Assembly: GCA_020854915.1 (NCBI GenBank)
Contig: JAHKLT010000001.1
Coordinates: 1-34,507, forward strand
Reading direction: 5' to 3'
Source: Methanobacteriaceae archaeon
Lineage (GTDB): Archaea > Methanobacteriota > Methanobacteria > Methanobacteriales > Methanobacteriaceae
DNA length: 34,507 nt
Shown: positions 1,381 to 33,514 of the stretch, in pieces
How positions within the stretch are numbered: position 1 is the stretch's first letter
Layout of the letters: each line of letters begins with the position of its first letter
The notes under the pieces: model-generated
What the model saw: only the letters and a program-made list of their open reading frames with translations
Told to the model about the DNA's origin: nothing
Databases searched by the model: none
Made by a program: the position numbers and the translations under genes

Positions 1381-1812
1381 TTATAAATCATAAATTTCAT
1401 TTGAAGGAACAATTACTACATTATTCTTTTTTAATATTTTAATTAAATTGTCAATATCATCAGTATGTAAAAGTAAAATAGCTTTTTCTGATTTTTCATG
1501 AGTAAATGCATAGAGGTATTCTAAGTCAATATTATTCTCATTTAAAATTTTTAAGATTGAAGATAATCCTCCAGGAGTATCATTTAATTCAATAGCTATT
1601 ATTTTAGTTATTTTAACAATAAAATTATTTTCTTCTAAAACTTTTCGACCTTTAATTGGATCATCAACAACTATTCTTAAAATAGCAAATTCCGATGTAT
1701 CAGCAAGTGATAATGCTCTAATATTAACTTTTCCCTCAGATAAAACATTTAAGGCATTATATAAATTTCCTTTTTTATTTTGTAAAAATATAGACAATTG
1801 ATCTATTTTCAT
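1381..1812 (-). CDS. Tandem ACT-domain protein, likely amino-acid-binding regulator
   Basis: A 143-residue protein made of two ACT-like beta-alpha-beta modules. The first begins KIDQLSIFLQNKKGNLYNAL and the second begins around residue 68 with IIAIELNDTPGGLSSIL; both show the loop where ACT domains bind amino acids. The start at 1812 is chosen because a GGTGATC ribosome site sits just before ATG; a GTG at 1821 falls inside that site. The gene follows the phenylacetate-CoA ligase gene directly, and that gene's TAG stop (1824-1822) touches this ribosome site, so translation is probably coupled. In methanogens this pairing fits salvage of arylacetates into aromatic amino acids, with the ACT protein sensing an amino acid; that role is inferred. 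Confidence 0.85.
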   Translation of the reverse strand: MKIDQLSIFLQNKKGNLYNALNVLSEGKVNIRALSLADTSEFAILRIVVDDPIKGRKVLEENNFIVKITKIIAIELNDTPGGLSSILKILNENNIDLEYLYAFTHEKSEKAILLLHTDDIDNLIKILKKNNVVIVPSNEIYDL

Positions 1813-1821
1813 AATGATCAC

Positions 1822-3123
1822 CTATTTTAAATTTCTTTTATCAATTACTCTAATAGCTTTACCTTCACTTCTTGGAATACTTTTAGGTTCAACTAGTGTA
1901 ACTTTAACTCGAATTCCAATCTCATTTTCAATTAATTTAGCTATTTTATTTTGAATATGCATCATTTCTTTTACACCATCAAAGAAAAGTTCTTGAGATG
2001 CTTCAACTTTTACTTCAATTTCATCCATTAAATCTGGTCTTGTAACAATAATCTGATAGTGAGGTTCTATACGACTAATTTTAAGCAATGCTTTTTCAAT
2101 TTGTGATGGGAATACTCCTACACCTTTAACTTTAAGCATGTCATCAGTACGACCTGTAATTCTACTCATCCTAAGTAATGTTCTACCACACTCACATTTT
2201 TCATATTTTAGTGATGTAATATCTTTTGTTCTAAATCTTATAACAGGCATTCCTTCTCTATATAAATTAGTTAAAACTAACTCTCCTCTTTCTCCATTTT
2301 TAATTGTTTCCTTATTTTTAGGATTAATAATTTCTGGATAAAAAATATCTTCTGCTACATGTAAACCATCTTGTTTAATGCATTCAACACCTACACCTGG
2401 ACCTAATAATTCAGTTAATCCATAAATATTAAATGCTTTACAATTAAAGATTTCTTCTATTTTTAATCGCATTTCTTCAGTCCACATTTCTGAGCCGAAA
2501 CCTATAGATTTAATTCCCATTTTATGAGGATCAATATTTTCTTCTTTAGCTACTTCACCTAAATACATTCCATATGAAGGAGTAAAAATAAGACCAGTAG
2601 ATCCAAAATCATTCATTATTTCAACTTGACGTCTTGTTTGACCTGTTGAGATTGGTATAACTGTCATTCCAATTTTTTGAGCACCATAATGAATACCAAA
2701 GCCACCTGTAAATAAACCATATCCATGAGTGTTTTGAATTATATCATCTTCATCAAGTCCCATCATTGTTAAACCACGAGCCATAACTTCAGCCCAAATA
2801 TCTAAATCTTTTTGAGTATAACCTGAAACAACTGGTTTTCCTGTTGTTCCTGATGAGCTATGAACTTCGATTATTTCTTTCTTATCAACAGCAAACATTC
2901 CAAAAGGATAACTTTCTCTTAAATCATCTTTAGTTAAAAAGGGTAGTTTTTCAATATCATTTAATGAATTAATATCTTCTGGAAAAATATTAAATTCACT
3001 GTATTTTTTATTATAAAAAGGAATTTTATTAAAAGCTGTTTTAACTGTATTTTGAAGTCTTTTAAGTTGTAATTCTTCTAAATCCTCACGTTCCATACAT
3101 TCAGAATTCTTATTCCAAATCAT
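1822..3123 (-). CDS. paaK: Phenylacetate-CoA ligase family (PaaK-like) adenylate-forming enzyme
   Basis: A 433-residue member of the ANL adenylating superfamily, full length for PaaK. The phosphate-binding motif SSGTTGKP is at residues 90-97, YGLTE near residue 235, and the C-terminal hinge and lid region contain [19 protein letters not shown]. It would activate an aryl acid such as phenylacetate with ATP and CoA. In methanogens such genes often lie with indolepyruvate ferredoxin oxidoreductase, which reductively carboxylates the arylacyl-CoA; no ior genes are visible here. Homologues have also been annotated as coenzyme F390 synthetase, so the exact substrate is open. A GAGGTTT ribosome site precedes ATG 3123. 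It is the first gene of a two-gene unit with the ACT protein. Confidence 0.88.
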
Positions 3124-3278
3124 TTTAAACCTCTATTATAAAAATAGGATTTTTAATATATTAAAGTTTATTATTTTTATATTAATTAAAAAAAACTATT
3201 TAATTAAATAATAAATTTTTAGTAAATATTAAATATCTTTTAAAACATATATTTATAGTAATTATAAAAGGTGATTTT

Positions 3279-3434
3279 ATGTGTAGTGTTGGTGGCCCTA
3301 TGGGTGATGTTGACATGAAAAAATTAAAAACTAAAAGGTATCGTTGTTTAAAATGTTCCAATGAATTTAAAGGTCTTGGAAAACGTATTGTCTGCCCATC
3401 ATGTCAAAGTGAAGATATTGAATCTTTAGAATAA
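3279..3434 (+). CDS. Small zinc-ribbon protein, 51 residues
   Basis: ATG 3279 follows a textbook GGTGAT ribosome site (3270-3275) and the frame stays open to TAA 3432-3434. The product starts MCSVGGPMGDVDMKK and has two CxxC knuckles, CLKC and CPSC, about 16 residues apart, which is a rubredoxin-like or zinc-ribbon fold. Function is unknown; such small ribbons bind nucleic acid or act as protein adaptors. It is followed 15 bases later by the next gene, so the two are probably cotranscribed with the DUF116 gene. Confidence 0.85.
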   Translation: MCSVGGPMGDVDMKKLKTKRYRCLKCSNEFKGLGKRIVCPSCQSEDIESLE

Positions 3435-3449
3435 TTTTTGAGGAATATT

Positions 3450-3902
3450 TTGAATATTAACTTGAGTAATGATGAGATTTTATTTCTTAAAGGAGATAAT
3501 GGTCTTGTTGGAATAATTAAAATAGCTAAAAAGAATAAAATTATTTATATTGGAACTCCTGATAATGATGAAATAGCTATGTTTCTTGAAGAAGATGATT
3601 TAATAGCTATATCTTCATTTAATAAAGATGAAAAAGCAATTAAGTCTTTAGGGTATTTAACACGTGAAAGTGATATGCCAATTATCGTACTTGATAAAAA
3701 TCATCCTTCTTCTAAGAGATTACCTTTAGTTTTATCTATAGGTAGTAAAGTAAAGTTAAATTGTAATATTAAACCTGGTACTCATCCTGAGCAAGATGTA
3801 CTATGTTCTTGTGATTCTCTATCTGGTTTAATTATAGCTAAAACAGAAGATGGAATTAGATTAAATAAAGAATTTGAAGATTATGAAATAAAAGAGTTTT
3901 AA
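3450..3902 (+). CDS. Conserved hypothetical protein, middle gene of a three-gene unit
   Basis: About 150 residues, soluble and acidic, with no signal peptide or membrane segment. I do not recognise the family. It has a beta-rich N-terminal half, and a CSC pair in a segment reading DVLCSCDSLSGL near residue 122 that might bind metal or form a disulphide. The start is set at TTG 3450 because GAGG lies at 3440-3443, six bases upstream; a TTG at 3438 overlaps that site and is less likely. It lies between a zinc-ribbon gene and a DUF116 gene with gaps of 15 and 3 bases, so a joint function is likely but unknown. Confidence 0.75.
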   Translation: MNINLSNDEILFLKGDNGLVGIIKIAKKNKIIYIGTPDNDEIAMFLEEDDLIAISSFNKDEKAIKSLGYLTRESDMPIIVLDKNHPSSKRLPLVLSIGSKVKLNCNIKPGTHPEQDVLCSCDSLSGLIIAKTEDGIRLNKEFEDYEIKEF

Positions 3903-3905
3903 TTT

Positions 3906-4601
3906 ATGTTTGAATCAATATATCAATTATTAGGTCAAAGTATTATATTAGTAGTTATAGTATTAATTATATTGTTTTTATTAGCTATATTACTTGGAAA
4001 GATTTTAATTAAAAATGATATTTTAATATTTCCACAACTAATTATTTTTGTATTAGATATTTTCTATTCACCACTTAAAAAAGTAGCTAAAACATTAAAA
4101 TTTGATGAATCTTTAATAGATCATATAGGGGTAGAAGTTAGAAATAATGTAAATAGAGCAAAATTTTTAAAAATTCCACCTGAGAAGAAATTAATTTTTT
4201 TACCTCATTGCCTAAGACATAGAGAATGTGAAGCTATTTTAAATGAAACTGGTCTTGTTTGTACTAGATGTAAAAAATGTTCTATTGGTTTTATAATGGA
4301 AAAAGCTGAACCAATGGGTTATAAATCATTTATTGTTCCTGGATCTAGTTTTGTTAAAAAAATAGTGAAAGAAAATAAATTTGAAGCTGTTGTTGGAATA
4401 GCTTGTTATGAAGATTTAAATCAAACTATGATGAATTTATCTGATTTTCATCCACAAGGTGCTGTTTTATCAAGAACAGGTTGTTATGAAACAAAAGTTG
4501 ATGTTAAATCTGTTTTAGAAGTGATTAATTATAAAGATCCAGAAAAAGTAAAAGAAGTAAATCCTAATAAGGACTTATGTACTAATAAAAAAAAAGTTTA
4601 A
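3906..4601 (+). CDS. DUF116 family cysteine-rich membrane protein
   Basis: A 231-residue protein. Residues 8-30 and about 38-55 are strongly hydrophobic and probably anchor it in the membrane. The soluble part has the DUF116 hallmarks: LPHCLRHRECEA, then CTRCKKCSIG, and later GIACYEDL and RTGCYETKVD. The many conserved cysteines suggest a metal or Fe-S site. The biochemical role of DUF116 is not established as far as I know. It ends at TAA 4599-4601, directly abutting the stop codon of the convergent HMG-CoA reductase gene, with no space for a separate terminator between them. Confidence 0.85.
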   Translation: MFESIYQLLGQSIILVVIVLIILFLLAILLGKILIKNDILIFPQLIIFVLDIFYSPLKKVAKTLKFDESLIDHIGVEVRNNVNRAKFLKIPPEKKLIFLPHCLRHRECEAILNETGLVCTRCKKCSIGFIMEKAEPMGYKSFIVPGSSFVKKIVKENKFEAVVGIACYEDLNQTMMNLSDFHPQGAVLSRTGCYETKVDVKSVLEVINYKDPEKVKEVNPNKDLCTNKKKV

Positions 4602-5807
4602 TTAACCCCTTCCTAATTCTTTATGTGCACGTGCAAGATGTCCTGCTGCAAGAGCTGATATAAGTGATAATTCTCCTGCAAGTACTACTCCTGCAATAAT
4701 CTCTGCAAATTCTTGAACTTTAGATGAACCTGCAACATTTAAAATATTTAATCCTTCATTTGCTGTTTCTATTGAAGTTCCTCCTCCAACAGTAGCTATT
4801 GGTAAATCAGGTAAATTAACAGAAAAATACAAGTCCCCATTCCTATCTTCTGCTGTTGTAATACCAAGGGATCCTTCGACAGTATGTGCTAAGTCCTGAC
4901 CAGTAGCTAAGAAAATAGCTGCAATCATATTTGCATAATGAGCATTATAAGATAAGCTTCCAGCTGATGCAGACCCAATAAGGTTTTTAGAAATATTTAC
5001 CTCTTGAATTGCACTTGCTGTAGTTTTAAGTTTTTCTTTTACAATTTCTTCAGGAATTATTATATCTGCAGATATTGTTTTTCCTCTACCTTCAATCATA
5101 TTAATAGCTGCAGGTTTTTTATCTACACATACATTACCACTTAAAGCAATATGGGTTACATCAAGTGATTTTTCAAGATCTTCTAGAATTTTTTCAGTAG
5201 CTATTGTAACCATATTCATTCCCATACTATCTCCTGTTGAGTAGACAAATCTAGGATAAATATAGTTACCTATAATTAATATTGGATTGATTTTTAAAAG
5301 TTTTCCATGATTTGTTGTTTCTTCTGCAATTTTTTTTAATTTAGTAAAATTTTCTTCTAAATAATTTTTAACTTTAAGAGCATCTTTTGCAGAATTCGCT
5401 TTTATAATTGGTGCTCTTGTCATTTTATCAGAGATAATTGTTGTATTTACCCCACCAGCTAATGTTATTGTTGAACAACCTCTATTAATTGATGCAACAA
5501 GAGCTCCTTCTGATGTTGCAAGAGGAACATAGACTTCTCTATTACAATAATCACCATTTATTTTTAAAGGACCTGCTACACCAAGAGGTATTTGAATTGT
5601 ACCAATTGGATTTTCAATATTTCTTTTAGAAGCCTTTTCTAAATCTAAATCATATTTAGCTATTATATCTAGAGAACTATCTGAAAATTCTTCTATAAAT
5701 TTACGTCTAATTTTAATAGCTTCATCTACAGAAGATGCATATTTTTCTACTTGATATAGTTTTATATTACCTTCTTTTAATCCATTTAATATTTCATCAT
5801 GATTCAT
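4602..5807 (-). CDS. hmgA: 3-hydroxy-3-methylglutaryl-CoA reductase, class I
   Basis: A 401-residue enzyme that makes mevalonate from HMG-CoA with NADPH, the committed step to archaeal isoprenoid membrane lipids. The ENPIG and PLGVAGPL stretch, the catalytic Glu in TSEGALVAS (E100), the MGMNM cofactor region, the Asp in GQDLAHTVEGS and the C-terminal catalytic His in LARAH (about residue 395) are all present. The length and lack of an N-terminal membrane region are typical of archaeal enzymes. It is the third gene of a unit behind sucD, with a 9-base gap and a GTGA-type ribosome site. Confidence 0.97.
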   Translation of the reverse strand: MNHDEILNGLKEGNIKLYQVEKYASSVDEAIKIRRKFIEEFSDSSLDIIAKYDLDLEKASKRNIENPIGTIQIPLGVAGPLKINGDYCNREVYVPLATSEGALVASINRGCSTITLAGGVNTTIISDKMTRAPIIKANSAKDALKVKNYLEENFTKLKKIAEETTNHGKLLKINPILIIGNYIYPRFVYSTGDSMGMNMVTIATEKILEDLEKSLDVTHIALSGNVCVDKKPAAINMIEGRGKTISADIIIPEEIVKEKLKTTASAIQEVNISKNLIGSASAGSLSYNAHYANMIAAIFLATGQDLAHTVEGSLGITTAEDRNGDLYFSVNLPDLPIATVGGGTSIETANEGLNILNVAGSSKVQEFAEIIAGVVLAGELSLISALAAGHLARAHKELGRG

Positions 5808-5816
5808 AATTTCACT

Positions 5817-6677
5817 TCATAAAGAATCTTTAATTAATTTAACAATTTCAGATGGCATTTTAGCTGTTTTAACTCCAACATCAGATAATGCATTTATTTT
5901 ACTTTGAGCTGTTCCAGAATTTCCTTGAATAATAGCTCCGGCATGACCCATTCTTTTACCTGGTGGTGCAGTCATACCTGCAATGTATGATACAACAGGT
6001 TTTGAAATATTATCTTTAATATACTCTGCAGCCATTTCTTCTGCATTTCCACCAATTTCACCGATTAAAACAATTGCATCTGTATCATTATCATCTTCAA
6101 ACATCTGTAATATATTCGGATAATTTGTACCAATTACAGGATCTCCACCAATTCCAACACAAGTACTTTGACCAATATCATTCATTGTAAGTTGACTTGC
6201 TACCTCATAAGTTAATGTTCCACTTCTAGATATTACACCAACATTACCCTCTTTAAAAATATGAGTTGGCATTATTCCCAGTTTACCAACACCAGGAGAT
6301 ATAATTCCAGGAGTATTAGGGCCGATAACGGTTGTGTTGTGTTTTTTAGCATATTCCACAATTTCCATTGAATCATGAACAGGAATATGTTCTGTAATAA
6401 TAATAACTAAATCTAAATATTTTATAGATTCAAATGCTGCATCTTTTCCAAATGGAGATGGTACAAAAATTATAGAAGCATTAACATCTGTATTTTCTTT
6501 TGCTTCTTCAATACTATTAAAAATAGTAACTGATTCTAAAGATTGTCCACCTTTTCCTGGTGTTACACCTGCAACAATGTTTGTGTTATATTTTAACATT
6601 TCTAAAGTATGAAATGAACCTTGATTTCCAGTAATTCCTTGAACTAAACATTTTGTATCTTCATCTAATAATATCAT
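5817..6677 (-). CDS. sucD: Succinyl-CoA synthetase (ADP-forming), alpha subunit
   Basis: A 286-residue protein, normal length. It has the N-terminal CoA-binding Rossmann region ([11 protein letters not shown]), the [11 protein letters not shown] stretch, [11 protein letters not shown], and the phosphorylated active-site His in GHAGAI (H245). With SucC it interconverts succinate, CoA, ATP and succinyl-CoA in the incomplete reductive citric acid pathway of methanogens. No beta-subunit gene lies in the window, which is common in archaea where sucC and sucD are apart. A GGAGGAATT ribosome site precedes ATG. It sits between an unknown gene and hmgA in one transcription unit. Confidence 0.95.
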
Positions 6678-6694
6678 TTTAATAATTCCTCCAA

Positions 6695-7420
6695 TTATTT
6701 TAATATTCTCGTTTTATTTTCAAATGGAACAGCTAAATCAATTATATTTCCATTCATAAAAGCAGTAGCAGAAAAAATAACACTACCTGGTAAAACATTA
6801 CAATTACTGTGTCTTTTAACAAGATAAGTATTTTTATTTCCTAAAGCTGCACCAATCATTGCACTTGAAATTACACCAACAGCATCCATTTCTTCAATTG
6901 TTGCAACAATAACTGGATCATCAGTTTCAGGAGAAACAAAACCTACTCCAGGAATTTTTTTAATAGATTTTTCAATAGGTTTTGAAATATCTGTTAAACC
7001 TTTCATTCCAGTGCCAGCAGCTATTGCAGAATTTGCAACATCTTCAACAAAAGCTTCACCACCATAAGTATCAAATGCAAGTACAACAGCATCAGGATAA
7101 TAATCATTTCTAAATTTAGCTTCAGTATAAGAAATTCCTTCGCCTGCAGATTCTTTATCTTTAGAAATTCCTCTTAAATCACCTAAATCTTCAGAATTAT
7201 CACGTAAAACATTAACAATTTCCTGATTAACATCCTCAATTAAATCATCCTGGAAAATAGCAGAAATAGCAACATCATCTCCAGTAATATTTATTAAACT
7301 AGCATAAATAGCTCCTAAATCAGTGATTCTGTGTAAATCATTTTCAATATTGTTAATTAAACAATCACTACATGAAACATCATTTTTAGAAATATCGGCT
7401 CCAATAACTGAAATTTTCAA
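6695..7420 (-). CDS. Conserved hypothetical protein upstream of sucD
   Basis: About 241 residues, soluble, probably an alpha/beta fold; I do not recognise the family. It begins [16 protein letters not shown] and has two cysteines in SCSDC near the N-terminus and a glycine-rich [14 protein letters not shown] stretch near residue 190, which may bind a nucleotide or cofactor. The start is set at TTG 7420, because a GGGTG ribosome site lies just before it; the ATG at 7432 overlaps that site and has none of its own, though a leaderless start there is possible. It is the first gene before sucD and hmgA. Confidence 0.75.
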
Positions 7421-7548
7421 TATTACACCCATTATAAAATAAATAATTATATATTAAATATTAATTCTCATTAAATATAAATCTATTTATAATGATTAGA
7501 TTAAATATAATATTAATTAATAAAATTATTATGCCCTAAGAGGAAAAT

Positions 7549-8217
7549 ATGTATTCACAAACAAAAATTGCTATTCCAGTACTAGAAAAAAACAAAGAAA
7601 AAGCTATTGAAGTAGCTAATGATTGTATAGACAAAGGAGCAGACATGATAGAACTTAGAATAGATGGGCTTGAAAATCCAGAATCAAAAATTGTTAAAGA
7701 AATAATCGATGAAGTAAATTTTCCAATAATTGCAACAAATAGAATAAAAAGTGAAGGAGGTTATTTTAAAGGCTCAGAAGAAGAAAGAATAAAAATATTA
7801 CTTGATTGTGCACATAAAATTGATTATGTGGATATAGAACTTCAAAGTAGTGATAAATACATAGAAGAGCTAAAAAATACAGGTGTTAAAACAATAATCT
7901 CATACCATGACTTTGAAAAAACTCCAGAACTTGATGAAATATTCTATATTGTAAAAAAAGAAAAAGAGCTCGGAGACATTGCAAAAGTTGCATTTATGCC
8001 TAATGACTTAGATGATACAATAAAAATTTTAGCTATTTTATCTCATTGTAAAAATACAATAGCTATTTCAATGGGAGAATTAGGTTCATATACAAGAATT
8101 ATGGCTTCAAAATTTAACTCACCAATTACTTTTGCAGCTGGAAGAGATCCAACAGCACCTGGACAAATTGATATTGAAACCATGAAATCATTATTTAATA
8201 TAGATTTAGATATATGA
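7549..8217 (+). CDS. aroD: 3-dehydroquinate dehydratase, type I
   Basis: A 222-residue type I dehydroquinase of the shikimate pathway, converting 3-dehydroquinate to 3-dehydroshikimate through a Schiff base. The catalytic His is in ISYHDFEKTP (H120) and the Schiff-base Lys in GDIAKVAFMP (K146); MIELRIDGLENP and GRDPTAPGQI near the ends are family signatures. A GAGG ribosome site lies upstream of ATG. The stop overlaps the start of the next gene as ATGA (8214-8217), so the two are translationally coupled, although their functions are not obviously linked. Confidence 0.96.
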   Translation: MYSQTKIAIPVLEKNKEKAIEVANDCIDKGADMIELRIDGLENPESKIVKEIIDEVNFPIIATNRIKSEGGYFKGSEEERIKILLDCAHKIDYVDIELQSSDKYIEELKNTGVKTIISYHDFEKTPELDEIFYIVKKEKELGDIAKVAFMPNDLDDTIKILAILSHCKNTIAISMGELGSYTRIMASKFNSPITFAAGRDPTAPGQIDIETMKSLFNIDLDI

Positions 8218-8837
8218 GGCATAATCTGACTAAAAATCAGATAATAGCTATTATTGGATTATTTTTAATATTTATTCTTGTTTTATTTTTTGTATTAAAT
8301 AATAATTATGTAGAAGTTCATTTAGATGGTGAAAATATTACAACTACAATAATTACAGCACTATTTATCCATGACAGTGAAACAATAAGTAATCAAATCA
8401 ATGAATATACAATGAAAACTACTAATAATGATTATGATTCAAATATTAGTAATCTAAAAGAAGGTATTAGAAACATTACTAAAAAACACGGAATGAATAA
8501 TGCAGATATAGTTATTAATTCTAAATATGGTGAAAATCAAATTCCTATCCTTTTTACAGTAAATGGAACATCTATGGATCCAACTTTAAAAGATAATCAA
8601 GATATAATCATTTTAAAAACTAAAGATATTCATGTTGGAGATATTGTAGTTTCAAATGACTCAGAATATGGAATTATTGTAAAAAGAGTTTCTGAAATTA
8701 ATGGAACAGGAATATACTTAACAAGTGATAATAAAGAGATTGAAACTGAATATATTAATGGTATTGAATACAAAAAAGAAGGAATAAAAACCTGGAACAA
8801 TCTATCAGATATTATTGGAATTGTAAAAGAATATTAA
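8214..8837 (+). CDS. Signal peptidase I / S26-like membrane serine peptidase
   Basis: A 207-residue protein with one N-terminal membrane helix (about residues 10-28) and a C-terminal peptidase module. The catalytic Ser is in NGTSMDPTL (S120), followed by the GDIVV turn and IIVKRVSEI, where K157 would be the general base. The KR pair resembles bacterial-type signal peptidases rather than the His of many archaeal/ER-type enzymes. About 90 residues separate the membrane helix from the SMDP box, longer than usual. It overlaps aroD by four bases. It could process secreted protein precursors or be a specialised paralogue. Confidence 0.8.
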   Translation: MRHNLTKNQIIAIIGLFLIFILVLFFVLNNNYVEVHLDGENITTTIITALFIHDSETISNQINEYTMKTTNNDYDSNISNLKEGIRNITKKHGMNNADIVINSKYGENQIPILFTVNGTSMDPTLKDNQDIIILKTKDIHVGDIVVSNDSEYGIIVKRVSEINGTGIYLTSDNKEIETEYINGIEYKKEGIKTWNNLSDIIGIVKEY

Positions 8838-8841
8838 AAAA

Positions 8842-8941
8842 TAAGTGTCGGTTAAAATAATTTTTTAAGAAAAAAATTTCTTAAAATAAAGGATTTTATT
8901 ATTGATTTGATGATATTATATATTTTTTTCTCCGACACTTA
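8842..8941. repeat. Structured 100-nt inverted-repeat element between convergent genes
   Basis: TAAGTGTCGG at 8842-8851 is the exact reverse complement of CCGACACTTA at 8932-8941. Inside, TTTTAAGAAA at 8863-8872 pairs perfectly with TTTCTTAAAA at 8877-8886 around a four-A loop. It fills the gap between the signal-peptidase-like gene and glnK, which converge. It may act as a two-way terminator or be a short MITE; no clear target-site duplication is visible. Confidence 0.7.
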
Positions 8942-8963
8942 GAAAATTATTAAACTTATATAA

Positions 8964-9302
8964 TTAAATTGCGTCTTTTCCTTTTTCACCTGTTCTAATC
9001 CTTATTATTTCTTCAATTGGCGAAATAAATATTTTACCATCTCCAATTTCTCCAGTTTTTCCAGAATTTACTATAGTTTCTGTAACTAAATCTAAATCTT
9101 CTTTTTTAATTACTAATTCAATTCTTGTTTTAGGAAGTAAATCAATACAATACTTTGATCCCCGGTATGTTTCTTTTATACCCATTTGGCGACCTCTTCC
9201 TTTAACTTCAGAAACATTCATTCCATCACAACCAATTTCATGAAGAGCATTTTTTACATCTTCAAGTTTTTCTTGTCTAATAATTGCAACTACTCTTTTC
9301 AT
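8964..9302 (-). CDS. glnK: Nitrogen regulatory protein P-II (GlnK type)
   Basis: A 112-residue P-II signalling protein, normal length. The T-loop reads GIKETYRGSKYCIDLLPK and keeps Tyr51; the B-loop TGEIGDGKIFI and C-terminal RIRTGEKGKDAI are intact. It would bind ATP, ADP and 2-oxoglutarate and block the ammonium channel when nitrogen is ample. It lies 11 bases downstream of amt with an AAGGAG ribosome site, the classic amt-glnK operon, and so shares the NrpR-type control of the amt promoter. Confidence 0.95.
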   Translation of the reverse strand: MKRVVAIIRQEKLEDVKNALHEIGCDGMNVSEVKGRGRQMGIKETYRGSKYCIDLLPKTRIELVIKKEDLDLVTETIVNSGKTGEIGDGKIFISPIEEIIRIRTGEKGKDAI

Positions 9303-9313
9303 AGTTTAACTCC

Positions 9314-10525: not shown

Positions 10526-10591
10526 AAATATCTTTTCTCATTATAATAATTAAATTTTTAAATTTTTTTTATAAAATATATCACGGAAGAC

Positions 10592-10605: not shown

Positions 10606-10627
10606 TATATACAATAATTATTTTTGG

Positions 10628-24839: not shown

Positions 24840-24853
24840 ATTATCTCCTACAA

Positions 24854-25225
24854 TTAATTAGGTTGTTCTATAATTATATTTCTAACAATACAATCTTTTC
24901 CATTTAAAATTGAAACTCTTTTATTCTTACATTTTGGACACTCAATAATAGGAGCATAATGATCTAAATCATCAGTATTAGCATTACCTTTAAATTTACA
25001 TTCAGGGCATTCAATTTCTGCAGGAATCTCAATAATATCAAATTTAGCATTTTCAACAATAGTATTTTCACATAAAACATCTAACATAAATGATAATTGC
25101 TCAGGATTGATTAAAACAAGTTTACCTATTTCAATAACGATTTCAGTTACTTCCGTAGCATTATTTTCATTAGCAGTTTCAATAACAGAATTTATTATCC
25201 CTTGAGCCATAGCTAATTCATGCAT
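24854..25225 (-). CDS. hypA: Hydrogenase nickel-insertion protein HypA
   Basis: A 123-residue metallochaperone. The N-terminal MHELAMAQGI includes His2, the nickel ligand, and the zinc site is formed by CPECKF and CPKCKN. It delivers nickel to hydrogenase large subunits with HypB, which is the next gene. GAGGT precedes ATG 25225. The pair serves the several [NiFe]-hydrogenases expected in a hydrogenotrophic methanogen. Confidence 0.96.
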   Translation of the reverse strand: MHELAMAQGIINSVIETANENNATEVTEIVIEIGKLVLINPEQLSFMLDVLCENTIVENAKFDIIEIPAEIECPECKFKGNANTDDLDHYAPIIECPKCKNKRVSILNGKDCIVRNIIIEQPN

Positions 25226-25341
25226 CTTTTATACCTCTTATAAAAATAAAAATTTCAATTAATTAATTTATCTTAAAAATATATTAGTAAAAAAAGTATT
25301 TAAAATTAACTATAAAATATGTTAAATAAATTAAAGAGATT

Positions 25342-27951
25342 TTAAACCTTCTTTTTTAAATTCATAAATAATTCATTAGCATCTTCATTATAAGAATCAA
25401 TAGATAATGCTTTTTTAACAAAATTCATAGACCCATTAATATCTCCTTGATTATCTAAAATCTTAGCAAGTAGTACCCATGCATTAGTATATTTTTTATT
25501 TAAGTCAATTATTTCAACTAAAATATCTTTAGCATTTAAATAATCCTTCTTATAAAAAAGTTCCAATGATTCATTATACATTGAATCAGGATTTTTAATA
25601 TCACTACTACTTGAAATTTGAGACTTTTTTATTTTAATATCTTTTTTATCATGTTTTTTAGGTTTTTTAGCTATTTCCTGACACATATAATTTAATATAT
25701 CTCTAGTAACTTTTTTATGAAGTGGTTTATTATCATTACCACATTTAGGTGAATAGATACATGAAGGACAACCATCCCGACATTTACATTCATCTAAAAG
25801 ATCTTTTGTAGATTTTAATATATCTGAAAATACATCAATAGCTTTTTCACTAATTCCAATACCATCTTCATATGCATCATAAATAAAAATTGTAGCTTCT
25901 TGTGTATCTTCATGGTAATTAATAGATAATCCACCTATATCAAACCGATCACACATTACATGTAAAGGAAATAATCCAATAATTGCATGTTCAACACCAT
26001 GTAAACCACCAGCAAAAACATCATCCCCTTCATATTTTTCTTCTAGCTCTTTTTTAAAATCTTCTGGAATTGTAAACCATACACCTTTTGTTTCAAACTT
26101 TAAAGGAGGTAGATTTAGAAAATATGTTCCTAATGTTTTTGAAAAATGTATTTTTTTATATTTATGATAATCTTCTGAGACTTCTAAAGATCCAAAATTA
26201 ATTGAAAAATTGTTTATTTTCCTTTTATCTATTTTCTTTTTTATTTTAATATCAACATCTTTTAAAACCGTTGTATGATAATCAACAACTTGTTTAGAAA
26301 CATTTACAAATCCTTTAGATAAATTTACATTATTTACTATGAAAGTTTCACCTTTATTTATTAAAACTGCCCCCTCATGGGCTTCACGATATACTTGAGA
26401 TCTTTCCATAGTCTCAAGAAGATGATTATCATTCATAATCTTAAAGTAATCAGTTGATAACTGATCTAGGGAATGATGAAATGAAGGATTATCATCGAAA
26501 GGATAAATATATTGATTTTTAAGATTTTTATTTAAATCTTTTGATTTAAACAATTCTTCTAAAATAGCTTCACTACAATTAAAATATATACTTGCATCTT
26601 CTTTTGTTAAAGGTAATTCTTGACATGCACATAAAATATGAGCTTTTTTTAAAAACTTATTGTTTGTATCAATAATTGCATTTTCATGAGGTTTATCAAA
26701 AAAGAAATCAGGATTATTCATAAAATATTGATCCAATTGGTTTTCAAAAGCTATTAATATAACTAAAGATTTTTGCATTCCTCTGCCTGCACGACCTCCT
26801 TGTTGCCATGTAGAAATCATAGTACCAGGATATCCTGAAATAATAACAGCATCTAAAGAACCTATATTAATTCCAAGTTCTAAAGCATTAGTACAAGTAA
26901 CCCCTAATAAGTTCCTACTTTTTAAACCATCTTCAATTTCACGCCTCTCATTTGCAAGATAACCAGCCCTATAAGCAGTAATTCTATCAGTTAATTTATT
27001 TTTAGTTTGTTTCATATCTCTTTTTGCAAGCATAGTTATTAGTTCTGCAATTTTTCGAGAAACAGTAAAACATAAAGTTTGAATATCTTTTAAAATCAAA
27101 TACATAAATATATTCTCAGTTACCTGATGAATTGATGGAGAATTATCACCACGACCTTTATTCCTTTTATTATTTTTAAAAGGATTATATAAAATAAAGT
27201 CTTTTTCACCACTTGGAGATGTATCTTTATCTACTAAAGTAAATTCTTCACCAGTTAATTTAATTGCAAGTTCCAATGGATTAGCTAAAGTAGCTAATGA
27301 TAAAATAAATTGAGGATTTGATCCATAAAAATTAGCTATTCTTTTAAGACGTTTAATTAAAAAACTTACATTTGAGCCAAAAATTCCTTTATAGTAATGA
27401 GATTCATCAATAACAATATACTTTAAATTACTGTAAAACCTTTTCCACTGATGATGCCAAGCTAAAATATGATGAAGTTGATAAGGATTTGTTAAAATAA
27501 TTCTTGAATTTTGACGAATATCATATCTTCTTGATTTATCAGTATCACCATCATAAGTTTCAGGATTAATATCTAATCCTAATTCTTCTTCTAAATTTTT
27601 TAAAATATCTAATTGATCATATGATAAAGCTTTTGCAGGATAAATATAAAGTGCAGTATTCAAGTCAGATTCTATTAATGAATCAAGAATTGGTAAATTA
27701 AATGCTAATGTTTTTCCAGAAGCTGTAGGAGTAGTTAAAATTACATTTTCACCATTTTTCACATGTTCATATGTTTCAGCCTGATGAGAATAAAGTTTAA
27801 TTTCTTTTTTATTAAGGTAATCTTTTAAAACTTTATTTATATTAGTAATTTTCTTATATTTACCTTTTTTTGGAGGAATAGTCTTAATATAAGCTATTTT
27901 ATCCTTAAATCTCACATCATTTTTAAATTTATCTATATTATTATCTACCAT
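25342..27951 (-). CDS. MrfA/Hrq1-like DEAD/DEAH helicase with DUF1998 and C-terminal TPR
   Basis: About 869 residues. The N-terminal helicase has Walker A TPTASGKT (about 74-81), the DEAH-box DESHYYKG, the motif III-like SLATLANP and motif VI QGGRAGRG. A DUF1998-type region follows with four cysteines in CKCRDGCPSCIYSPKC, the zinc cluster of MrfA. After a Lys-rich linker the last about 75 residues form TPR-like helices (NESLELFYKKDYLNAKDILV, then NAWVLLAKILDNQGD), an unusual addition. MrfA unwinds DNA 3' to 5' in crosslink repair. The start ATG 27951 is chosen over a TTG at 27960. No clear ribosome site is seen. Confidence 0.88.
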   Translation of the reverse strand: MVDNNIDKFKNDVRFKDKIAYIKTIPPKKGKYKKITNINKVLKDYLNKKEIKLYSHQAETYEHVKNGENVILTTPTASGKTLAFNLPILDSLIESDLNTALYIYPAKALSYDQLDILKNLEEELGLDINPETYDGDTDKSRRYDIRQNSRIILTNPYQLHHILAWHHQWKRFYSNLKYIVIDESHYYKGIFGSNVSFLIKRLKRIANFYGSNPQFILSLATLANPLELAIKLTGEEFTLVDKDTSPSGEKDFILYNPFKNNKRNKGRGDNSPSIHQVTENIFMYLILKDIQTLCFTVSRKIAELITMLAKRDMKQTKNKLTDRITAYRAGYLANERREIEDGLKSRNLLGVTCTNALELGINIGSLDAVIISGYPGTMISTWQQGGRAGRGMQKSLVILIAFENQLDQYFMNNPDFFFDKPHENAIIDTNNKFLKKAHILCACQELPLTKEDASIYFNCSEAILEELFKSKDLNKNLKNQYIYPFDDNPSFHHSLDQLSTDYFKIMNDNHLLETMERSQVYREAHEGAVLINKGETFIVNNVNLSKGFVNVSKQVVDYHTTVLKDVDIKIKKKIDKRKINNFSINFGSLEVSEDYHKYKKIHFSKTLGTYFLNLPPLKFETKGVWFTIPEDFKKELEEKYEGDDVFAGGLHGVEHAIIGLFPLHVMCDRFDIGGLSINYHEDTQEATIFIYDAYEDGIGISEKAIDVFSDILKSTKDLLDECKCRDGCPSCIYSPKCGNDNKPLHKKVTRDILNYMCQEIAKKPKKHDKKDIKIKKSQISSSSDIKNPDSMYNESLELFYKKDYLNAKDILVEIIDLNKKYTNAWVLLAKILDNQGDINGSMNFVKKALSIDSYNEDANELFMNLKKKV

Positions 27952-28028
27952 ATATATCAAAAAATCTTAAAATAAGCTTAAAAAGAATTATATTAATATA
28001 CATTTTTTATAAACTTAGTAATATACTT

Positions 28029-28154
28029 TTATTTTTTATATTTAGTATATGCTACAATTAAAATTAATATTAAAAATATAATAGCTAATGCATATACTAA
28101 ACACTTATTTCTACAACATATACATCTTTTTATTAAAAATAATCCATAATTCAA
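28029..28154 (-). CDS. Candidate 41-residue membrane peptide with a cysteine knuckle
   Basis: From TTG 28154 the minus strand is open for 41 codons to TAA 28031-28029. The product begins MNYGLFLIKRCICCRNKC and then forms one hydrophobic helix ending YTKYKK. The four cysteines (C-x-C-C-x3-C) before a membrane helix look non-random, but the ribosome site is weak (no clear SD) and the sequence is AT-rich, so it may be a chance frame. It lies in the gap between the DUF2142 gene and the helicase gene, on the same strand. Confidence 0.35.
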   Translation of the reverse strand: MNYGLFLIKRCICCRNKCLVYALAIIFLILILIVAYTKYKK

Positions 28155-28179
28155 CTTTTTATCTAAACTTTAAGCTTTT

Positions 28180-29706
28180 TTAATAGTATTTAATAGCTGT
28201 AGCTAAAACACCTGATCCTAAAAAAGCAAATGTTATTATGATTATTATTAAATCAATTTTTTTATCTCTACTTACATTGTTATTGATTCCAAATACAAAT
28301 GGTAATAGTGATAATAATGGAATAAAGTATCTAGCTTGTATTCCTGAAATTGAACTTGATCCAACAGGAGACCAGGTTATGTATTGTGATAAGAAAATTC
28401 CATAAAAGCTTATTAAAACAATGCAAAATGAAAAAACTCTTAGTTTATTACTAATTTTATTTTTATAAGGATATAAAAAGCAAATAGCTCCAAAAAACAT
28501 GGTATAAATACCATTTATTAATCCAGAATCATAAGCATTTTCTGCATAAGAGAAGACAAATAAGTCTTGTATATATGGTAAATAATGTGTAACATTAAAC
28601 AAAAGCAAGATAGTTTCACGAGGATGTGATATCATATTGTTTATTTGAGCTGTGGAACTTACATTATTTGCAATAATATAATCTATCCTATAAGAATTAT
28701 TTATAGCTGGAACAGCAATATGATTACTCCATATTAATCCTATAACACCTACTAAAACAATACTTATTAAACCATAATAATATTTATTAAATTCAAATTT
28801 GTCATTTGGAACTATCAATATTAAAAATATAAAAGCTAAGTAAGGTAGTTTACATAAACCCAATATCAAGCATAAAAAAGAAAAAATAGCTAGTTCTCTC
28901 TTAGTTAAGCTATTTGTTTTAGATTTAATCATATAAAAAAAGTAAGCTATTATAAGAAGTGCTAATCCATTAATCATACTATCAATACTCATTGAAGCAC
29001 CTTGATAAACTGCTAAAGGTAGACATGCTACTGCAATAAAAGGAATTTTTAAAATAGGTGTTTTTTTAACTGCAATAGATATAAGTGCAGAATATAATAC
29101 TAAATTAAAAAGCCTTCCAAGCCATAAAAGCCAAATTTGATTTAAATCAAATATTTTAGCAAAAAATATTCCAATAGCTTGAGCTAAATAACCAAAAAAT
29201 GGGTTTTGCTGAAAAGCCGAATGGAAAAAAACAGAACTATGATTAATTACTTGATTATCACTATTAGATTCAAAAACAGTTGATCCTCTATCATCAAATA
29301 ATACTAAAAAACTTTGAATTGTTTTAAAACCTTGTCCTGGAAAATGATTTGGGAAAAGTTCACCTTGAGATACTAATTCAGCTCTAATAAAATGTTCCCC
29401 TTCATCAGGAACATCAAAAATAGGTGTTATAAAAACTAAAAAAATACCAAAACATAAAACAGCTATAAATGCAACTTTATGTAGTTCTTTAATATGTTTT
29501 GTATAATAATTAATTAAAAATAAGCCTAAAAATAGAACTAATAAAAAAATAATAATTTCAAATCTTGGATTTGAAAAATTCTTAGAAGATACCATGGTTA
29601 TTGAAATAATAAATAAGAATATTGAAAAGAAAAGCAAATATTTCTTGTTTTTAATTGTTTCATTATAATATGAAATTAAAGTTTTTTTTAAAATTATTTC
29701 ATTCAT
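28180..29706 (-). CDS. DUF2142 family polytopic membrane protein
   Basis: A 508-residue protein with about 11-13 hydrophobic helices. The family signature ITPIFDVPDEGEHFIRA sits near residue 110-126, in the first large outer loop, with the acidic DVPDE core that recalls GT-C type glycosyltransferases. A lipid-sugar-dependent transferase acting in cell-surface glycan synthesis is possible, but the activity has not been shown. An AAGGTT ribosome site precedes ATG 29706. It is transcribed divergently from the UvrD-like helicase gene. Confidence 0.82.
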   Translation of the reverse strand: MNEIILKKTLISYYNETIKNKKYLLFFSIFLFIISITMVSSKNFSNPRFEIIIFLLVLFLGLFLINYYTKHIKELHKVAFIAVLCFGIFLVFITPIFDVPDEGEHFIRAELVSQGELFPNHFPGQGFKTIQSFLVLFDDRGSTVFESNSDNQVINHSSVFFHSAFQQNPFFGYLAQAIGIFFAKIFDLNQIWLLWLGRLFNLVLYSALISIAVKKTPILKIPFIAVACLPLAVYQGASMSIDSMINGLALLIIAYFFYMIKSKTNSLTKRELAIFSFLCLILGLCKLPYLAFIFLILIVPNDKFEFNKYYYGLISIVLVGVIGLIWSNHIAVPAINNSYRIDYIIANNVSSTAQINNMISHPRETILLLFNVTHYLPYIQDLFVFSYAENAYDSGLINGIYTMFFGAICFLYPYKNKISNKLRVFSFCIVLISFYGIFLSQYITWSPVGSSSISGIQARYFIPLLSLLPFVFGINNNVSRDKKIDLIIIIITFAFLGSGVLATAIKYY

Positions 29707-29915
29707 AACAATAGAACCTTCAATTATAAATTATTTCTATACATAAATATGTATTAATAATATATTAATTTGTTTTTTAAAAATTTATAAAAATACTTCT
29801 TAAATTTTATATTAGGATAATAATTCTTATTATTAATTAAATGCTCTTAACCTAAAAACTTATATTCAATATTAATTTAAATTAATATATTAACTAGTAA
29901 TAGCTGTGAAGAAAA

Positions 29916-32324
29916 ATGATAAGCAATGAAGAATTTAAAAATATTATAGTGAATATTCTTAATAGAGATATTTCAACTAATGAAGATCAAAAAGAAGCTA
30001 TTTTTTCTAGTACTGATGATTCATTATTCATTGTAGCAGGACCTGGTTCTGGAAAAACAACAGTTATGGTTTTAAAAATTTTGAAATTTATTTTTGTAGA
30101 TGATATTGAACCAACAGAAATATTATCAACTACTTTTACAAGAAAAGCAGCTGAAGAATTATATTCTAGAGTTTTAAGTTGGGGAGATGAAATTAAAAAG
30201 TTTTTACTTGAAAATAATAGTGACTTTGAAAAAATAGTAAAGATTAATAAAATAGATTTTAATCAAATTAACATTGGAACAATTGATGGTGTAGCAGAAG
30301 AATTACTAAGAGTTCATAGAGATCCAGGAACTAATTTACCAGTTGTTATTGAAACATTTGTTGCAAACTCAGCAATGATTCACTCAGGATTATTCAAAAA
30401 TAATAGATATCAAAAACAAGAACTTCAAGAATATCTTGGTCATTATAAAGGAATTAAAAAGATTTCAAATCCTGCTAAGATGAGTGAAGCAATTTTAGAG
30501 TTAAAAAATAGAATCTATTTTGATCAAATAGATTTCAATAAATTATATGAAAATACAATTTCTATTGGTGAAAAAATAGCTTTAGATGCTATTAAAGATT
30601 ATATTGAAGATTTAAATAATAGAAATATAATTGATTTTCCAATGCTTGAGGCAGAATTTTTAAAAAGACTTAAAAATAATAAACTAGATTTATTTTTAAA
30701 TAATATTAAAATATTATTAGTTGATGAATATCAAGATACTAATTTAATTCAAGAAAATATCTACTTTACAATAGCTAAATCTGCATTAAAAAACAAGGGT
30801 TCAATAACTGTTGTAGGTGATGATGATCAATCATTATACAGATTTAGAGGAGCTACAGTTGATTTATTTACTAATTTTAAAGAAAGATCTAAAAAAGCAT
30901 TAAATGTTGATATTAAAGAAATAAATCTAAAAACGAATTATAGGTCAACAGAAAATATTATAAAACATTGTAACCATTTTGTAGAATTAGATAAAAAATA
31001 CCAAAGTGCAAGAGTTAAAGAAAAACCAAAAATTAATGCTTTTAATATGGAAGGTAAAAAGATTCCTGTTTTAGGAATGTTTAGACATAATACTGAAATG
31101 CTTTCAAAAGATTTATCACGATTAATAAAAAACTTAGTTAATAAAAAAGAAATTAGTTTAAAAGTTAAAAAAGTTATTAATTCTCAAAAAAACTTAAGTG
31201 ATTCTAATCTATTAGAAAGTAGAAAAAAAGACTTAGGAAAATCTAAAGAAAATATTACATTAAGATTAGATGAAACTCATGGTTCTCCATCAGACATAGC
31301 TGTATTAACCTTTTCACCAAAAGAAATAAATAAAGGCAAATACTCAATTACACATTTTCTAAGAAAAGAACTTGAAACAGATAAAAATCCCATTAGTGTA
31401 TTTAATCCAAGAGGTCAAGTTTTACAAGAAATCAATTATGTTAGTGTTTTTTGTGGATTAATGTTAGAATGTATTGACCCAGAAAGTAATTATCAAAAAG
31501 AAATCAAAAAAATTCCAGGAATTGCAAAGAAAAATATGAGAAAATGGAGAGAAGCTGCAAGAGAATTTATTTCTAAATCTCCAGAACCACATAAACCTGT
31601 AAGTTTAGAAGAATTTGTTAAACATTGGCAAATTCGCCAACCTATAGGTTATGAAAAGTGGCCAGAAACTGCAAGTTTAATGGAACTTGCATATAAATTA
31701 ATTACTTGGATTGAAGTATTACAAGATGATGTTGAAGGAATAGTATATCTTGAAGCTATTACTAAAACAATAACACAAACTGGATTTTTTAATAAATATT
31801 CTGCTAATATTCATTTTGATGAAGATGAAAAAAACTCTATTGAAGAAGCATTATGGAATATTTTCATTCCAATAGCTATGGGTGGTGTTGAAATCGATGA
31901 AAATCTTCTTGAAACACTACCACAAGATAGAATAAATATTATGTCAATCCATCAATCAAAAGGATTAGAATTTCCTCTTGTTATTGTTGATGTAGGTTCA
32001 AAGTTCAAAAATAATGATTCAAAAAGTAAATATCAAAGGTTTCCTAAATCTAAAAAAGATAGTGAAACATTAGAAGATAGAATTAGAAATTTCAGTTCAA
32101 TTGGAAAATCTGAAAGAGATAATGAAGATAAAGCATTTGATGATTTAACAAGATTATATTTTGTTGCCTTCTCAAGAGCTGAAGATGTTCTTTTATTGAT
32201 AGGTTTAAATCCAGCTATTGAGGGATATATGATAAAAGATAAACATAAATCTATCCCAAATGTAGCTCTTGGATGGAGTAGAGATGAAGAATTCATTGGA
32301 TTTGATGAAATATATATGATTTAG
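29916..32324 (+). CDS. UvrD/AddA-like superfamily 1 DNA helicase
   Basis: An 802-residue SF1A helicase. The Q motif region NEDQKEAIFS, Walker A AGPGSGKTT (residues 41-49), the DEYQDTN box (about 270-276), GDDDQSLYRFRGA, the NYRSTENI motif IV, HQSKGLEFPLVIV (about 680) and LYFVAFSRAEDVLLL (about 750) are all present, so it is an active 3' to 5' translocase. A roughly 100-residue Lys/Ser-rich stretch lies between motifs IV and V. The nuclease gene follows 8 bases later, so they likely act as a helicase-nuclease pair similar to AddAB. The ribosome site is poor (GTGAAGAAA). Confidence 0.92.
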   Translation: MISNEEFKNIIVNILNRDISTNEDQKEAIFSSTDDSLFIVAGPGSGKTTVMVLKILKFIFVDDIEPTEILSTTFTRKAAEELYSRVLSWGDEIKKFLLENNSDFEKIVKINKIDFNQINIGTIDGVAEELLRVHRDPGTNLPVVIETFVANSAMIHSGLFKNNRYQKQELQEYLGHYKGIKKISNPAKMSEAILELKNRIYFDQIDFNKLYENTISIGEKIALDAIKDYIEDLNNRNIIDFPMLEAEFLKRLKNNKLDLFLNNIKILLVDEYQDTNLIQENIYFTIAKSALKNKGSITVVGDDDQSLYRFRGATVDLFTNFKERSKKALNVDIKEINLKTNYRSTENIIKHCNHFVELDKKYQSARVKEKPKINAFNMEGKKIPVLGMFRHNTEMLSKDLSRLIKNLVNKKEISLKVKKVINSQKNLSDSNLLESRKKDLGKSKENITLRLDETHGSPSDIAVLTFSPKEINKGKYSITHFLRKELETDKNPISVFNPRGQVLQEINYVSVFCGLMLECIDPESNYQKEIKKIPGIAKKNMRKWREAAREFISKSPEPHKPVSLEEFVKHWQIRQPIGYEKWPETASLMELAYKLITWIEVLQDDVEGIVYLEAITKTITQTGFFNKYSANIHFDEDEKNSIEEALWNIFIPIAMGGVEIDENLLETLPQDRINIMSIHQSKGLEFPLVIVDVGSKFKNNDSKSKYQRFPKSKKDSETLEDRIRNFSSIGKSERDNEDKAFDDLTRLYFVAFSRAEDVLLLIGLNPAIEGYMIKDKHKSIPNVALGWSRDEEFIGFDEIYMI

Positions 32325-32332
32325 GTGTTATT

Positions 32333-33514
32333 ATGAAGTTATCAGCAAGATCAAAAGCTTATATGATTCCAGAATATAGTTTAACAGGAGATTTACTCTC
32401 TTTTTTAACATGTAACTTACAATACAGATATCAAAATAAAGGAACACTTCCTCCATCAATGCCTATACAGCTATGGTTTGGAGAATTCATTCATGGAATT
32501 ATGGAAGAATCATATATTAAATGGAAAAATGGAAAAACAGAATTTCCATGGGATTGGAAAACTCAAATAAGACCAATTGAAGATATGATTGATTTACGTC
32601 TCCAAGTAAGAGGATTATATCCCCCACCAAAACAATTTTATTCTACAGTAAATGAAGAAAATGTTGAACTTACAGATGATCATGAATTAATAGCTAGTGC
32701 AAGAGCTATAGCATCAATAAATATATGGGGTCCTTATTTATTCCCTTTAATAGATTCTGCAGAAGTATTAATTAAAGGTATACGTGACATGCCAGATTAT
32801 GATGAAAGTAAAAGTAGATCTAATTACTATGGAATTAATGGAGTTATAGATGTTTTAAGTTCAATTAATATTCAAGAAACACAAGAAAAATCTAAATCAG
32901 ATAATGAAATAATAAATTACTTAAAAGAAAATAAAAAATTCCAAGAAACAATATTTAATTTAGATGATGAAGAATATGAGATAATAATAGATTATAAAGG
33001 TATGAAAAGACCAGGATTAGATAGTCCTAACTGGTTACATCACCAATGGCAGATTTTAACTTATTCTTGGCTTAGATCAAAACAAGAAGATTCTAAAAAA
33101 ATTATTGCAGGAATCATATTCTATCTAAATGAACTTGTACCTTCAATACCTGATTTAAAAGCTATTCAAAAAGATATATTTAAAAATAATACAGATGTTC
33201 TCCCAGAAGATAAAGATTTAATAGCTATTGAAGAATGGGATGAAAGTAAAAAAGTTCCAGAACTATCTGATAAATTTAAAATGAATAGATCAATTCGTAT
33301 TATTAATATTGATGAAAATAAAATTAAAACTTCCCTAAAAGAGTTTGATGATGTTGTTAAAAATATTGAAAAATCTTTAATTAGAGAAACTGATGGTTGT
33401 AAAATCAAAGAAGCGTGGAAAGCAGATGCTGAGGAGAGAACATGTCTTGCATGTGATTTTAAAACCTTTTGTAATAATAAACATAATCAAAGTAAAGAAT
33501 TTAGAATACCTTGA
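32333..33514 (+). CDS. RecB/AddB-like PD-(D/E)XK nuclease with Fe-S cysteines
   Basis: A 393-residue protein. Cys27 lies in FLTCNLQYRYQ, a conserved His in FGEFIHGIMEES (H54), the catalytic IIDYKGMK motif near residues 218-225, and three C-terminal cysteines in TCLACDFKTFC (C371, C374, C380). Cys27 and the last three form the Fe-S cluster pattern of AddB, Cas4 and DNA2-type nucleases. It should cut DNA at ends or single strands. AGGTG precedes ATG 32333. It is paired with the SF1 helicase upstream, for which DNA end processing is the most likely joint role; it is not next to CRISPR genes. Confidence 0.88.
   Translation: MKLSARSKAYMIPEYSLTGDLLSFLTCNLQYRYQNKGTLPPSMPIQLWFGEFIHGIMEESYIKWKNGKTEFPWDWKTQIRPIEDMIDLRLQVRGLYPPPKQFYSTVNEENVELTDDHELIASARAIASINIWGPYLFPLIDSAEVLIKGIRDMPDYDESKSRSNYYGINGVIDVLSSINIQETQEKSKSDNEIINYLKENKKFQETIFNLDDEEYEIIIDYKGMKRPGLDSPNWLHHQWQILTYSWLRSKQEDSKKIIAGIIFYLNELVPSIPDLKAIQKDIFKNNTDVLPEDKDLIAIEEWDESKKVPELSDKFKMNRSIRIINIDENKIKTSLKEFDDVVKNIEKSLIRETDGCKIKEAWKADAEERTCLACDFKTFCNNKHNQSKEFRIP

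What the first reader, a model, noticed from the sequence alone, without database searches (positions are those of the whole stretch)
1591..33229. Over-represented motif AATAGCT / AGCTATT, with seven AATAGCTATT palindromes
By hand I find about 80 AATAGCT or AGCTATT sites across the window on both strands, against roughly eight expected from base composition alone. The full palindrome occurs at 1591, 8058, 8243, 11774, 19276, 20614 and 33220, where far less than one is expected. Many are Ile-Ala-Ile as ATA-GCT-ATT, but the site at 20614 is in another frame and some sites are intergenic (28083, 29893, 34023). The motif is absent from 1-1380. It resembles iterated palindromes such as cyanobacterial HIP1 or could reflect a strong codon-pair bias.
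Basis: partly seen in the sequence, partly recalled or inferred. Interest (0 to 1): 0.7.

Follow-up and report, generated by a model that had tools for sequence, protein, structure and literature searches.

The report
Archaeal genome-wide AATAGCT word
A gut methane-producing archaeon and its relatives have filled their genomes with one short DNA word, AATAGCT, far beyond chance and independently of the proteins encoded, much as cyanobacteria did with HIP1, but without the DNA-methylation and mismatch-repair genes invoked to explain HIP1.

Summary
The window has 88 AATAGCT sites (9.5 expected) and seven AATAGCTATT palindromes (0.26 expected); its genome (1.66 Mb, "Methanomonile" group of Methanobrevibacter s.l.) has 321. 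It is a DNA-level signal: coding palindromes are 106 against 9.6 with protein and codon use fixed, and 21 with codon pairs also kept. Intergenic excess is as strong. All seven letters are favoured at synonymous sites (odds ratios 4-24).

The interpretation needs changing. Arms on the two sides of AGCT are statistically independent in seven genomes (own: 128 observed, 125.5 expected), so the unit is the directional 7-mer AATAGCT/AGCTATT. The word peaks in arthropod-gut genera (up to 819 palindromes per 1.1 Mb), is weaker in Methanocatella-type genomes and absent from Methanosphaera-type ones. It has no strand polarity and near-random spacing.

No methyltransferase family tracks it; only a Type I HsdM was found in this genome. 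MutS, ComEC and (in rich genera) Vsr were not found. Ortholog turnover rejects a mutational cold spot (p=0.005) and fits fixation bias. I favour selection for, or conversion toward, the site of an unidentified DNA-binding protein: a new archaeal variant of the HIP/uptake-sequence kind.

The parts
1591..1600 (.). AATAGCTATT, two overlapping half-sites; Ile-Ile-Ala-Ile frame of the gene 1381-1821 (-)
8058..8067 (.). AATAGCTATT; Thr-Ile-Ala-Ile in gene 7549-8217 (+)
8243..8252 (.). AATAGCTATT; Ile-Ile-Ala-Ile in gene 8214-8837 (+)
11774..11783 (.). AATAGCTATT; Lys-Ile-Ala-Ile in gene 11082-12305 (+)
19276..19285 (.). AATAGCTATT; Pro-Ile-Ala-Ile in gene 18937-19872 (-)
20614..20623 (.). AATAGCTATT in the other open frame, Asn-Ser-Tyr (AAT AGC TAT), gene 20336-21088 (-)
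33220..33229 (.). AATAGCTATT; Leu-Ile-Ala-Ile in gene 32333-33514 (+)
28080..28086 (+). intergenic half-site AATAGCT
29899..29905 (+). intergenic half-site AATAGCT
34022..34028 (+). half-site AATAGCT downstream of the 72-aa ORF 33783-34001, apparently intergenic
1477..34028 (.). span of all 88 half-sites AATAGCT/AGCTATT in the window (54 on +, 34 on -)
   Evidence: list; strand counts

Best explanation
The genome carries a genome-wide iterated DNA word, the directional 7-mer AATAGCT (= AGCTATT): a strict AGCT core plus one three-base arm. Shown: the excess acts on DNA irrespective of coding; every letter is favoured; each arm is acquired independently; the word is held near saturation at synonymous sites by a bias in which variants arise or become fixed (scaled coefficient about 2-3 if it is fixation bias), not by reduced mutation at existing sites. 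Inferred: a sequence-specific DNA-binding protein reads the word. Either many sites are mildly advantageous (chromosome organisation, repair or recombination), or repair or recombination resolves differences in favour of the word (drive). AATAGCTATT is two such words overlapping on AGCT. The bias is probably ancestral to Methanobrevibacter s.l. and strongest in arthropod-gut genera.
For: Coding palindromes 106 vs 9.6 (synonymous shuffle) and 21.3 (codon pairs kept); intergenic 13 vs 0.4; excess in all open frames and both orientations. 7-mer is the top coding word, 1111 vs 290, z=48. Odds ratios 4-24 at all seven positions, control words mostly near 1. Arm independence in seven genomes. Ortholog turnover: 28 one-sided sites seen; cold spot predicts 16.3 (P=0.005), fixation bias 26.8. 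Even density per gene, near-exponential spacing, no strand polarity in G000. Same word in related genera, graded from none to 104-fold. Saturation follows density.
Against: No candidate protein has been identified and no function tested. Selection cannot be told from drive, nor fixation bias from raised gain (30.0 predicted), without polymorphism data. The AGCT core is a palindrome, which fits a symmetric reader such as a methyltransferase, and arm independence does not rule out such a reader with flank preferences. About 10% of the genome is unassembled and only 925 kb was read.
Confidence: 0.6

Rival explanations
1. HIP1-type mechanism: an orphan AGCT methyltransferase marks the core, and methylation-dependent mismatch repair or selection for methylated sites builds up the flanks (model of PMC4390886).
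For: The core is AGCT, a known target of persistent orphan m4C methyltransferases in other archaea (PMC10609329). Core letters are strict and the arms more tolerant, as with HIP1, whose outermost base is also independent of its counterpart.
Against: No PF00145 or PF02086 match in G000; its only PF01555 match looks like a tRNA methyltransferase; the only DNA methyltransferase seen is a Type I HsdM. No family is shared by all 16 rich genomes. MutS mismatch-binding domain absent from all 139 genomes; Vsr absent from the rich genera. In Methanocatella-type genomes the common PF01555 enzyme goes with fewer sites.
Confidence: 0.15
2. DNA uptake or recombination word: cells preferentially take up or recombine DNA carrying AATAGCT, so the word spreads by molecular drive, as with the uptake sequences of Neisseria and Pasteurellaceae.
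For: Sharp non-palindromic word, both orientations equal, near-random spacing, all letters favoured, near saturation, related genera share the word.
Against: No ComEC match in any of 139 genomes; the search for papers on competence in Methanobrevibacter gave only reviews and unrelated work by title (not read in full).
Confidence: 0.12
3. Context-specific mutation creates the word (raised gain), with no selection or drive.
For: Ortholog turnover also fits raised gain (30.0 predicted, 28 seen).
Against: The bias covers all seven positions and both transitions and transversions; one mutational process would have to do all of these.
Confidence: 0.08
4. Mutational cold spot: bound or protected AATAGCT mutates less and therefore accumulates.
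For: Would affect all positions equally, as seen.
Against: Predicts 16.3 one-sided ortholog sites against 28 seen, P=0.005.
Confidence: 0.03
5. Codon, codon-pair or Ile-Ala-Ile protein bias.
For: Most coding sites are in the Ile-Ala/Ala-Ile frame; IAI tripeptides are themselves in excess.
Against: Intergenic excess (13 palindromes vs 0.4), other frames (Asn-Ser 41 vs 7, Ser-Tyr 24 vs 4, CTA frame 19 vs 2) and survival of the codon-pair-preserving model.
Confidence: 0.01

Closest known systems
HIP1 (GCGATCGC) and alternate HIPs of cyanobacteria
   Same: Genome-wide over-represented short palindromic sequence with a strict inner core and more tolerant flanks; present in coding and intergenic DNA; density varies between related genomes (PMC4390886).
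   Different: Archaeal, AT-rich. The arms are independent, so the unit is a 7-mer rather than the palindrome; the two halves of HIP1 around GATC are strongly coupled (65 vs 25.6). No companion methyltransferase found, and no MutS.
DNA uptake sequences (Neisseria DUS, Pasteurellaceae USS; from general knowledge)
   Same: Sharp non-palindromic word, no strand preference, genome-wide, shared by related genera.
   Different: Shorter (7 bp), palindromic core, in archaea, no ComEC in the family, no uptake evidence.
Persistent orphan AGCT m4C methyltransferases of archaea (HG11, HG16, HG19; PMC10609329)
   Same: Same AGCT core.
   Different: Reported as persistent in Methanoculleus, the Methanoregula/Methanospirillum group and Nitrososphaerota, with none persistent across Methanobacteria; none detected in the window's genome.
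Chi and KOPS words (from general knowledge)
   Same: Short over-represented directional words.
   Different: No strand polarity over contigs (p=0.81).

Membership tests
HIP (highly iterated palindrome) | Short sequence over-represented genome-wide, in and between genes | tested here: met
HIP (highly iterated palindrome) | The palindrome is the unit (halves coupled) | tested here: not met
   128 vs 125.5 expected from independent arms; HIP1 control 65 vs 25.6 around GATC
HIP (highly iterated palindrome) | Methyltransferase for the core present in rich genomes | tested here: not met
   None found in G000 by PF01555, PF00145, PF02086, PF07669; only Type I HsdM by PF02384. Limited by 90% completeness and families covered.
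HIP (highly iterated palindrome) | MutS-type repair required by the published model | tested here: not met
   PF01624 in 0 of 139 genomes; rings in 11 of 14 control genomes
DNA uptake sequence | Sharp word with equal orientation and spread over the genome | tested here: met
DNA uptake sequence | Competence channel ComEC | tested here: not met
   PF03772 in 0 of 139 genomes; rings in 10 of 14 controls
DNA uptake sequence | Preferential uptake of word-bearing DNA | not testable with these tools
   needs transformation assays
Chi/KOPS-type polar word | Strand polarity along replichores | tested here: not met
   chi2 23.9, df 31, p=0.81 in G000; weak heterogeneity in G002, p=0.005; draft contigs, no replication map
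Methylated AGCT motif | AGCT is modified in the cell | not testable with these tools
   no methylome data available here

The most novel reading that the evidence does not exclude
Methanobrevibacter s.l. archaea maintain a genome-wide directional word read by an undiscovered DNA-binding or recombination protein, without methylation or MutS. This would be an archaeal counterpart of HIP1 or of DNA uptake sequences, strong enough in arthropod-gut lineages to add Ile-Ala-Ile to proteins.
Probability: 0.45. Interest if true: 0.8.

Novelty: new variant of a known kind. Interest (0 to 1): 0.62.

Why it matters
HIP1 has been known for decades without an agreed function, and a published model ties it to orphan methyltransferases and MutS-type repair. 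An archaeal family with an equally strong iterated word, ranging from none to about one palindrome per 1.3 kb among genera and lacking those parts, separates the phenomenon from that machinery. It also offers a natural experiment (Methanosphaera-type none, Methanocatella-type weak, Methanobaculum-type strong) that includes cultivable strains. If it is an uptake or recombination word it would be, to my knowledge, the first in archaea and useful for the genetics of gut methanogens.

Tried and rejected
Codon-pair bias: rejected by shuffles and intergenic counts. Palindrome as unit: rejected by arm independence. Chi/KOPS: no strand polarity in G000. Mutational cold spot: rejected by ortholog turnover. 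Methyltransferase correlation: PF01555, PF00145 and PF02086 over 139 genomes, PF02384 and PF07669 over 19; none tracks the word. MutS_I, Vsr and ComEC: absent or unrelated. Viral contigs with two close palindromes: selected for the motif and only modestly enriched otherwise, so uninformative. Literature searches gave no prior description; the library is open-access only. One search had a script error in its coding-shuffle column and is superseded; only its intergenic columns are valid.

Full report
WHAT IS THERE. The window contains 88 AATAGCT/AGCTATT sites against 9.5 expected and seven AATAGCTATT at exactly the coordinates given, against 0.26 expected. Among 10-base palindromes with at least 15 copies in the window's genome, AATAGCTATT stands alone: 128 sites in 585 kb against 3.5 under a first-order model, about 37-fold. 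The whole genome, 1.66 Mb in 75 contigs, has 321.

WHOSE GENOME. The window belongs to the Methanobrevibacter s.l. lineage. Its nearest relative by a window protein is Methanobrevibacter sp. OttesenSCG-928-I08, whose count and size match the only other genome of the window's genus. PMC13135261 places that single-cell genome with "Methanomonile shimae" (g__JAHKLT01) in a proposed family "Methanobrevibacteraceae". The names Methanosphaera, Methanocatella and Methanobrevibacter s.s. for groups g12, g9 and g8 are inferred, largely from group size.

NOT CODON BIAS. With protein and per-gene codon use fixed, coding palindromes are 106 against 9.6 (max 16). With codon pairs preserved as well they are 106 against 21.3. 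In 55 kb of intergenic DNA there are 13 against 0.4. The 7-mer is enriched in every frame that is not a stop: AAT AGC T 41 against 7, AGC TAT T 24 against 4, AG CTA TT 19 against 2. In the window alone the figures are 84 against 25.2 (7-mer) and 7 against 0.86 (palindrome).

THE UNIT IS THE HALF-SITE. Around AGCT, the outward arm ATT occurs in 20% of cases in G000, against 4-6% around control palindromes. Sites with both arms equal the product of the single-arm rates: 128 vs 125.5 (G000), 50 vs 52.0 (G002), and 21 vs 17.2, 31 vs 23.5, 52 vs 51.5, 9 vs 6.5 and 8 vs 6.7 in five other genomes. As a control, 100 kb of a HIP1-rich Synechocystis plasmid showed strong coupling of the two halves around GATC (65 vs 25.6) and independence only of the outermost base (65 vs 66.4). 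So the repeated element here is a directional 7-mer with a strict AGCT core. Mismatches in AGCT abolish the excess; mismatches in the arm leave 1.1-2.4-fold. Arm independence does not by itself exclude a symmetric reader of AGCT that has flank preferences.

EVERY LETTER COUNTS. At synonymous sites where the other six letters match, the seventh is the word's letter 45-100% of the time. Odds ratios are 4-24 against the same codon family with the same next base (undefined where no alternative was seen), over all seven positions, covering transitions and transversions. Control words mostly give 0.5-2; the low outliers are those whose alternative letter makes the word. Ile codons in xxA-Ile-GCT are ATA in 89% (G000), 92% (M. 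cuticularis, M. filiformis) and 97% (G010) of cases, against 33-41% overall. No comparable effect is seen in the Methanosphaera-type or ruminantium-like genome. IAI tripeptides rise with site density: 0.8-fold in the Methanosphaera-type genome, 1.8 in G000, 3.0 in M. filiformis, 4.2 in G010. This suggests that the force also reaches amino-acid changes, but samples are small and the expectation is simple independence.

DYNAMICS. In 241 orthologous pairs between G000 and G002 (75% amino-acid identity), 28 one-sided word sites were seen. A cold spot with reduced loss predicts 16.3 (P=0.005), raised gain 30.0, and a fixation bias with S of 2.2-3.2 predicts 26.8. The word is lost and re-made, not merely protected.

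DISTRIBUTION. Per-gene counts are Poisson-like around expectation (dispersion 0.83) and similar over GC classes (3.4- to 4.2-fold). Spacing is close to exponential (CV 1.11), and strand preference is absent across G000 contigs (p=0.81), though weakly heterogeneous in G002 (p=0.005). Among 139 genomes palindrome counts run from 2-16 (Methanosphaera-type), 13-218 (Methanocatella-type) and 96-153 (Methanobinarius-type) to 184-965 in Methanovirga, Methanorudis, Methanoflexus, Methanobaculum and Methanacia types. The reversed control is 0-13.

MACHINERY LOOKED FOR. HIP1 goes with methyltransferases for its core (PMC4390886). In G000 no PF00145 or PF02086 match exists. The single PF01555 match is a 346-aa protein that looks like a THUMP-type tRNA guanosine methyltransferase, judged by eye. 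PF02384 gives one clear enzyme, HsdM of a Type I system whose HsdR reads as two ORFs. Across 16 motif-rich genomes each of the three main families is missing from several. In Methanocatella-type genomes a strong PF01555 enzyme goes with fewer sites (18 vs 31 per Mb, p=0.0003), a relation not corrected for phylogeny. The mismatch-binding domain of MutS and ComEC are absent from all 139 genomes, and Vsr was found only in g8, g9 and g12. The 10% of G000 not assembled, and enzyme families not covered, remain a gap.

READING. Shown: a DNA-level, word-specific, near-saturating bias for a 7-mer, shared by a family of gut methanogens and strongest in arthropod-gut genera. Inferred: a DNA-binding protein reads it, either because sites are useful or because repair or recombination favours them. 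I cannot separate selection from drive. An AGCT-specific modification remains possible and is directly testable in cultured strains.

VERDICT. Real, DNA-level and unreported in the literature that could be searched. It works like HIP1 or an uptake sequence, but it fails tested features of both and is best called a new archaeal variant of iterated genome words.

Noticed in passing
window 1-379: Two 140-nt inverted-repeat arms (1-140 and 240-379, 96% complementary) 99 nt apart, at the contig end, in a stretch without ORFs or motif sites; looks like a MITE or insertion-sequence remnant.
   Followed up: partly
L145 (G000 contig 25) 3275-9045: Type I restriction-modification locus next to an alaS-like gene; HsdR reads as two ORFs (146 and 838 aa), so possibly broken or a frameshift in assembly.
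   Followed up: no
Methanocatella-type genomes (g9): Most carry a ~296-aa PF01555 methyltransferase, and those genomes have fewer AATAGCTATT sites (18 vs 31 per Mb, p=0.0003, not corrected for phylogeny); might be an AGCT restriction-modification enzyme.
   Followed up: partly
G000, 585 kb read: CTGCAG and GCTGCAGC are also over-represented (5-fold and about 25-fold), probably Ala-Ala coding and codon use.
   Followed up: no
G036 and G012 (L089-L093, L079-L083): In these genomes ATAGCTA, TAGCTAA or GTAGCTA rank close to AATAGCT, a looser TAGCTA-centred excess that may be an earlier or eroded form of the word.
   Followed up: no
Genomes of L058 and L061 (g5, rumen and reindeer): A Methanobrevibacter s.l. 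group with near-background palindrome counts (6-31), suggesting secondary loss within the family.
   Followed up: no
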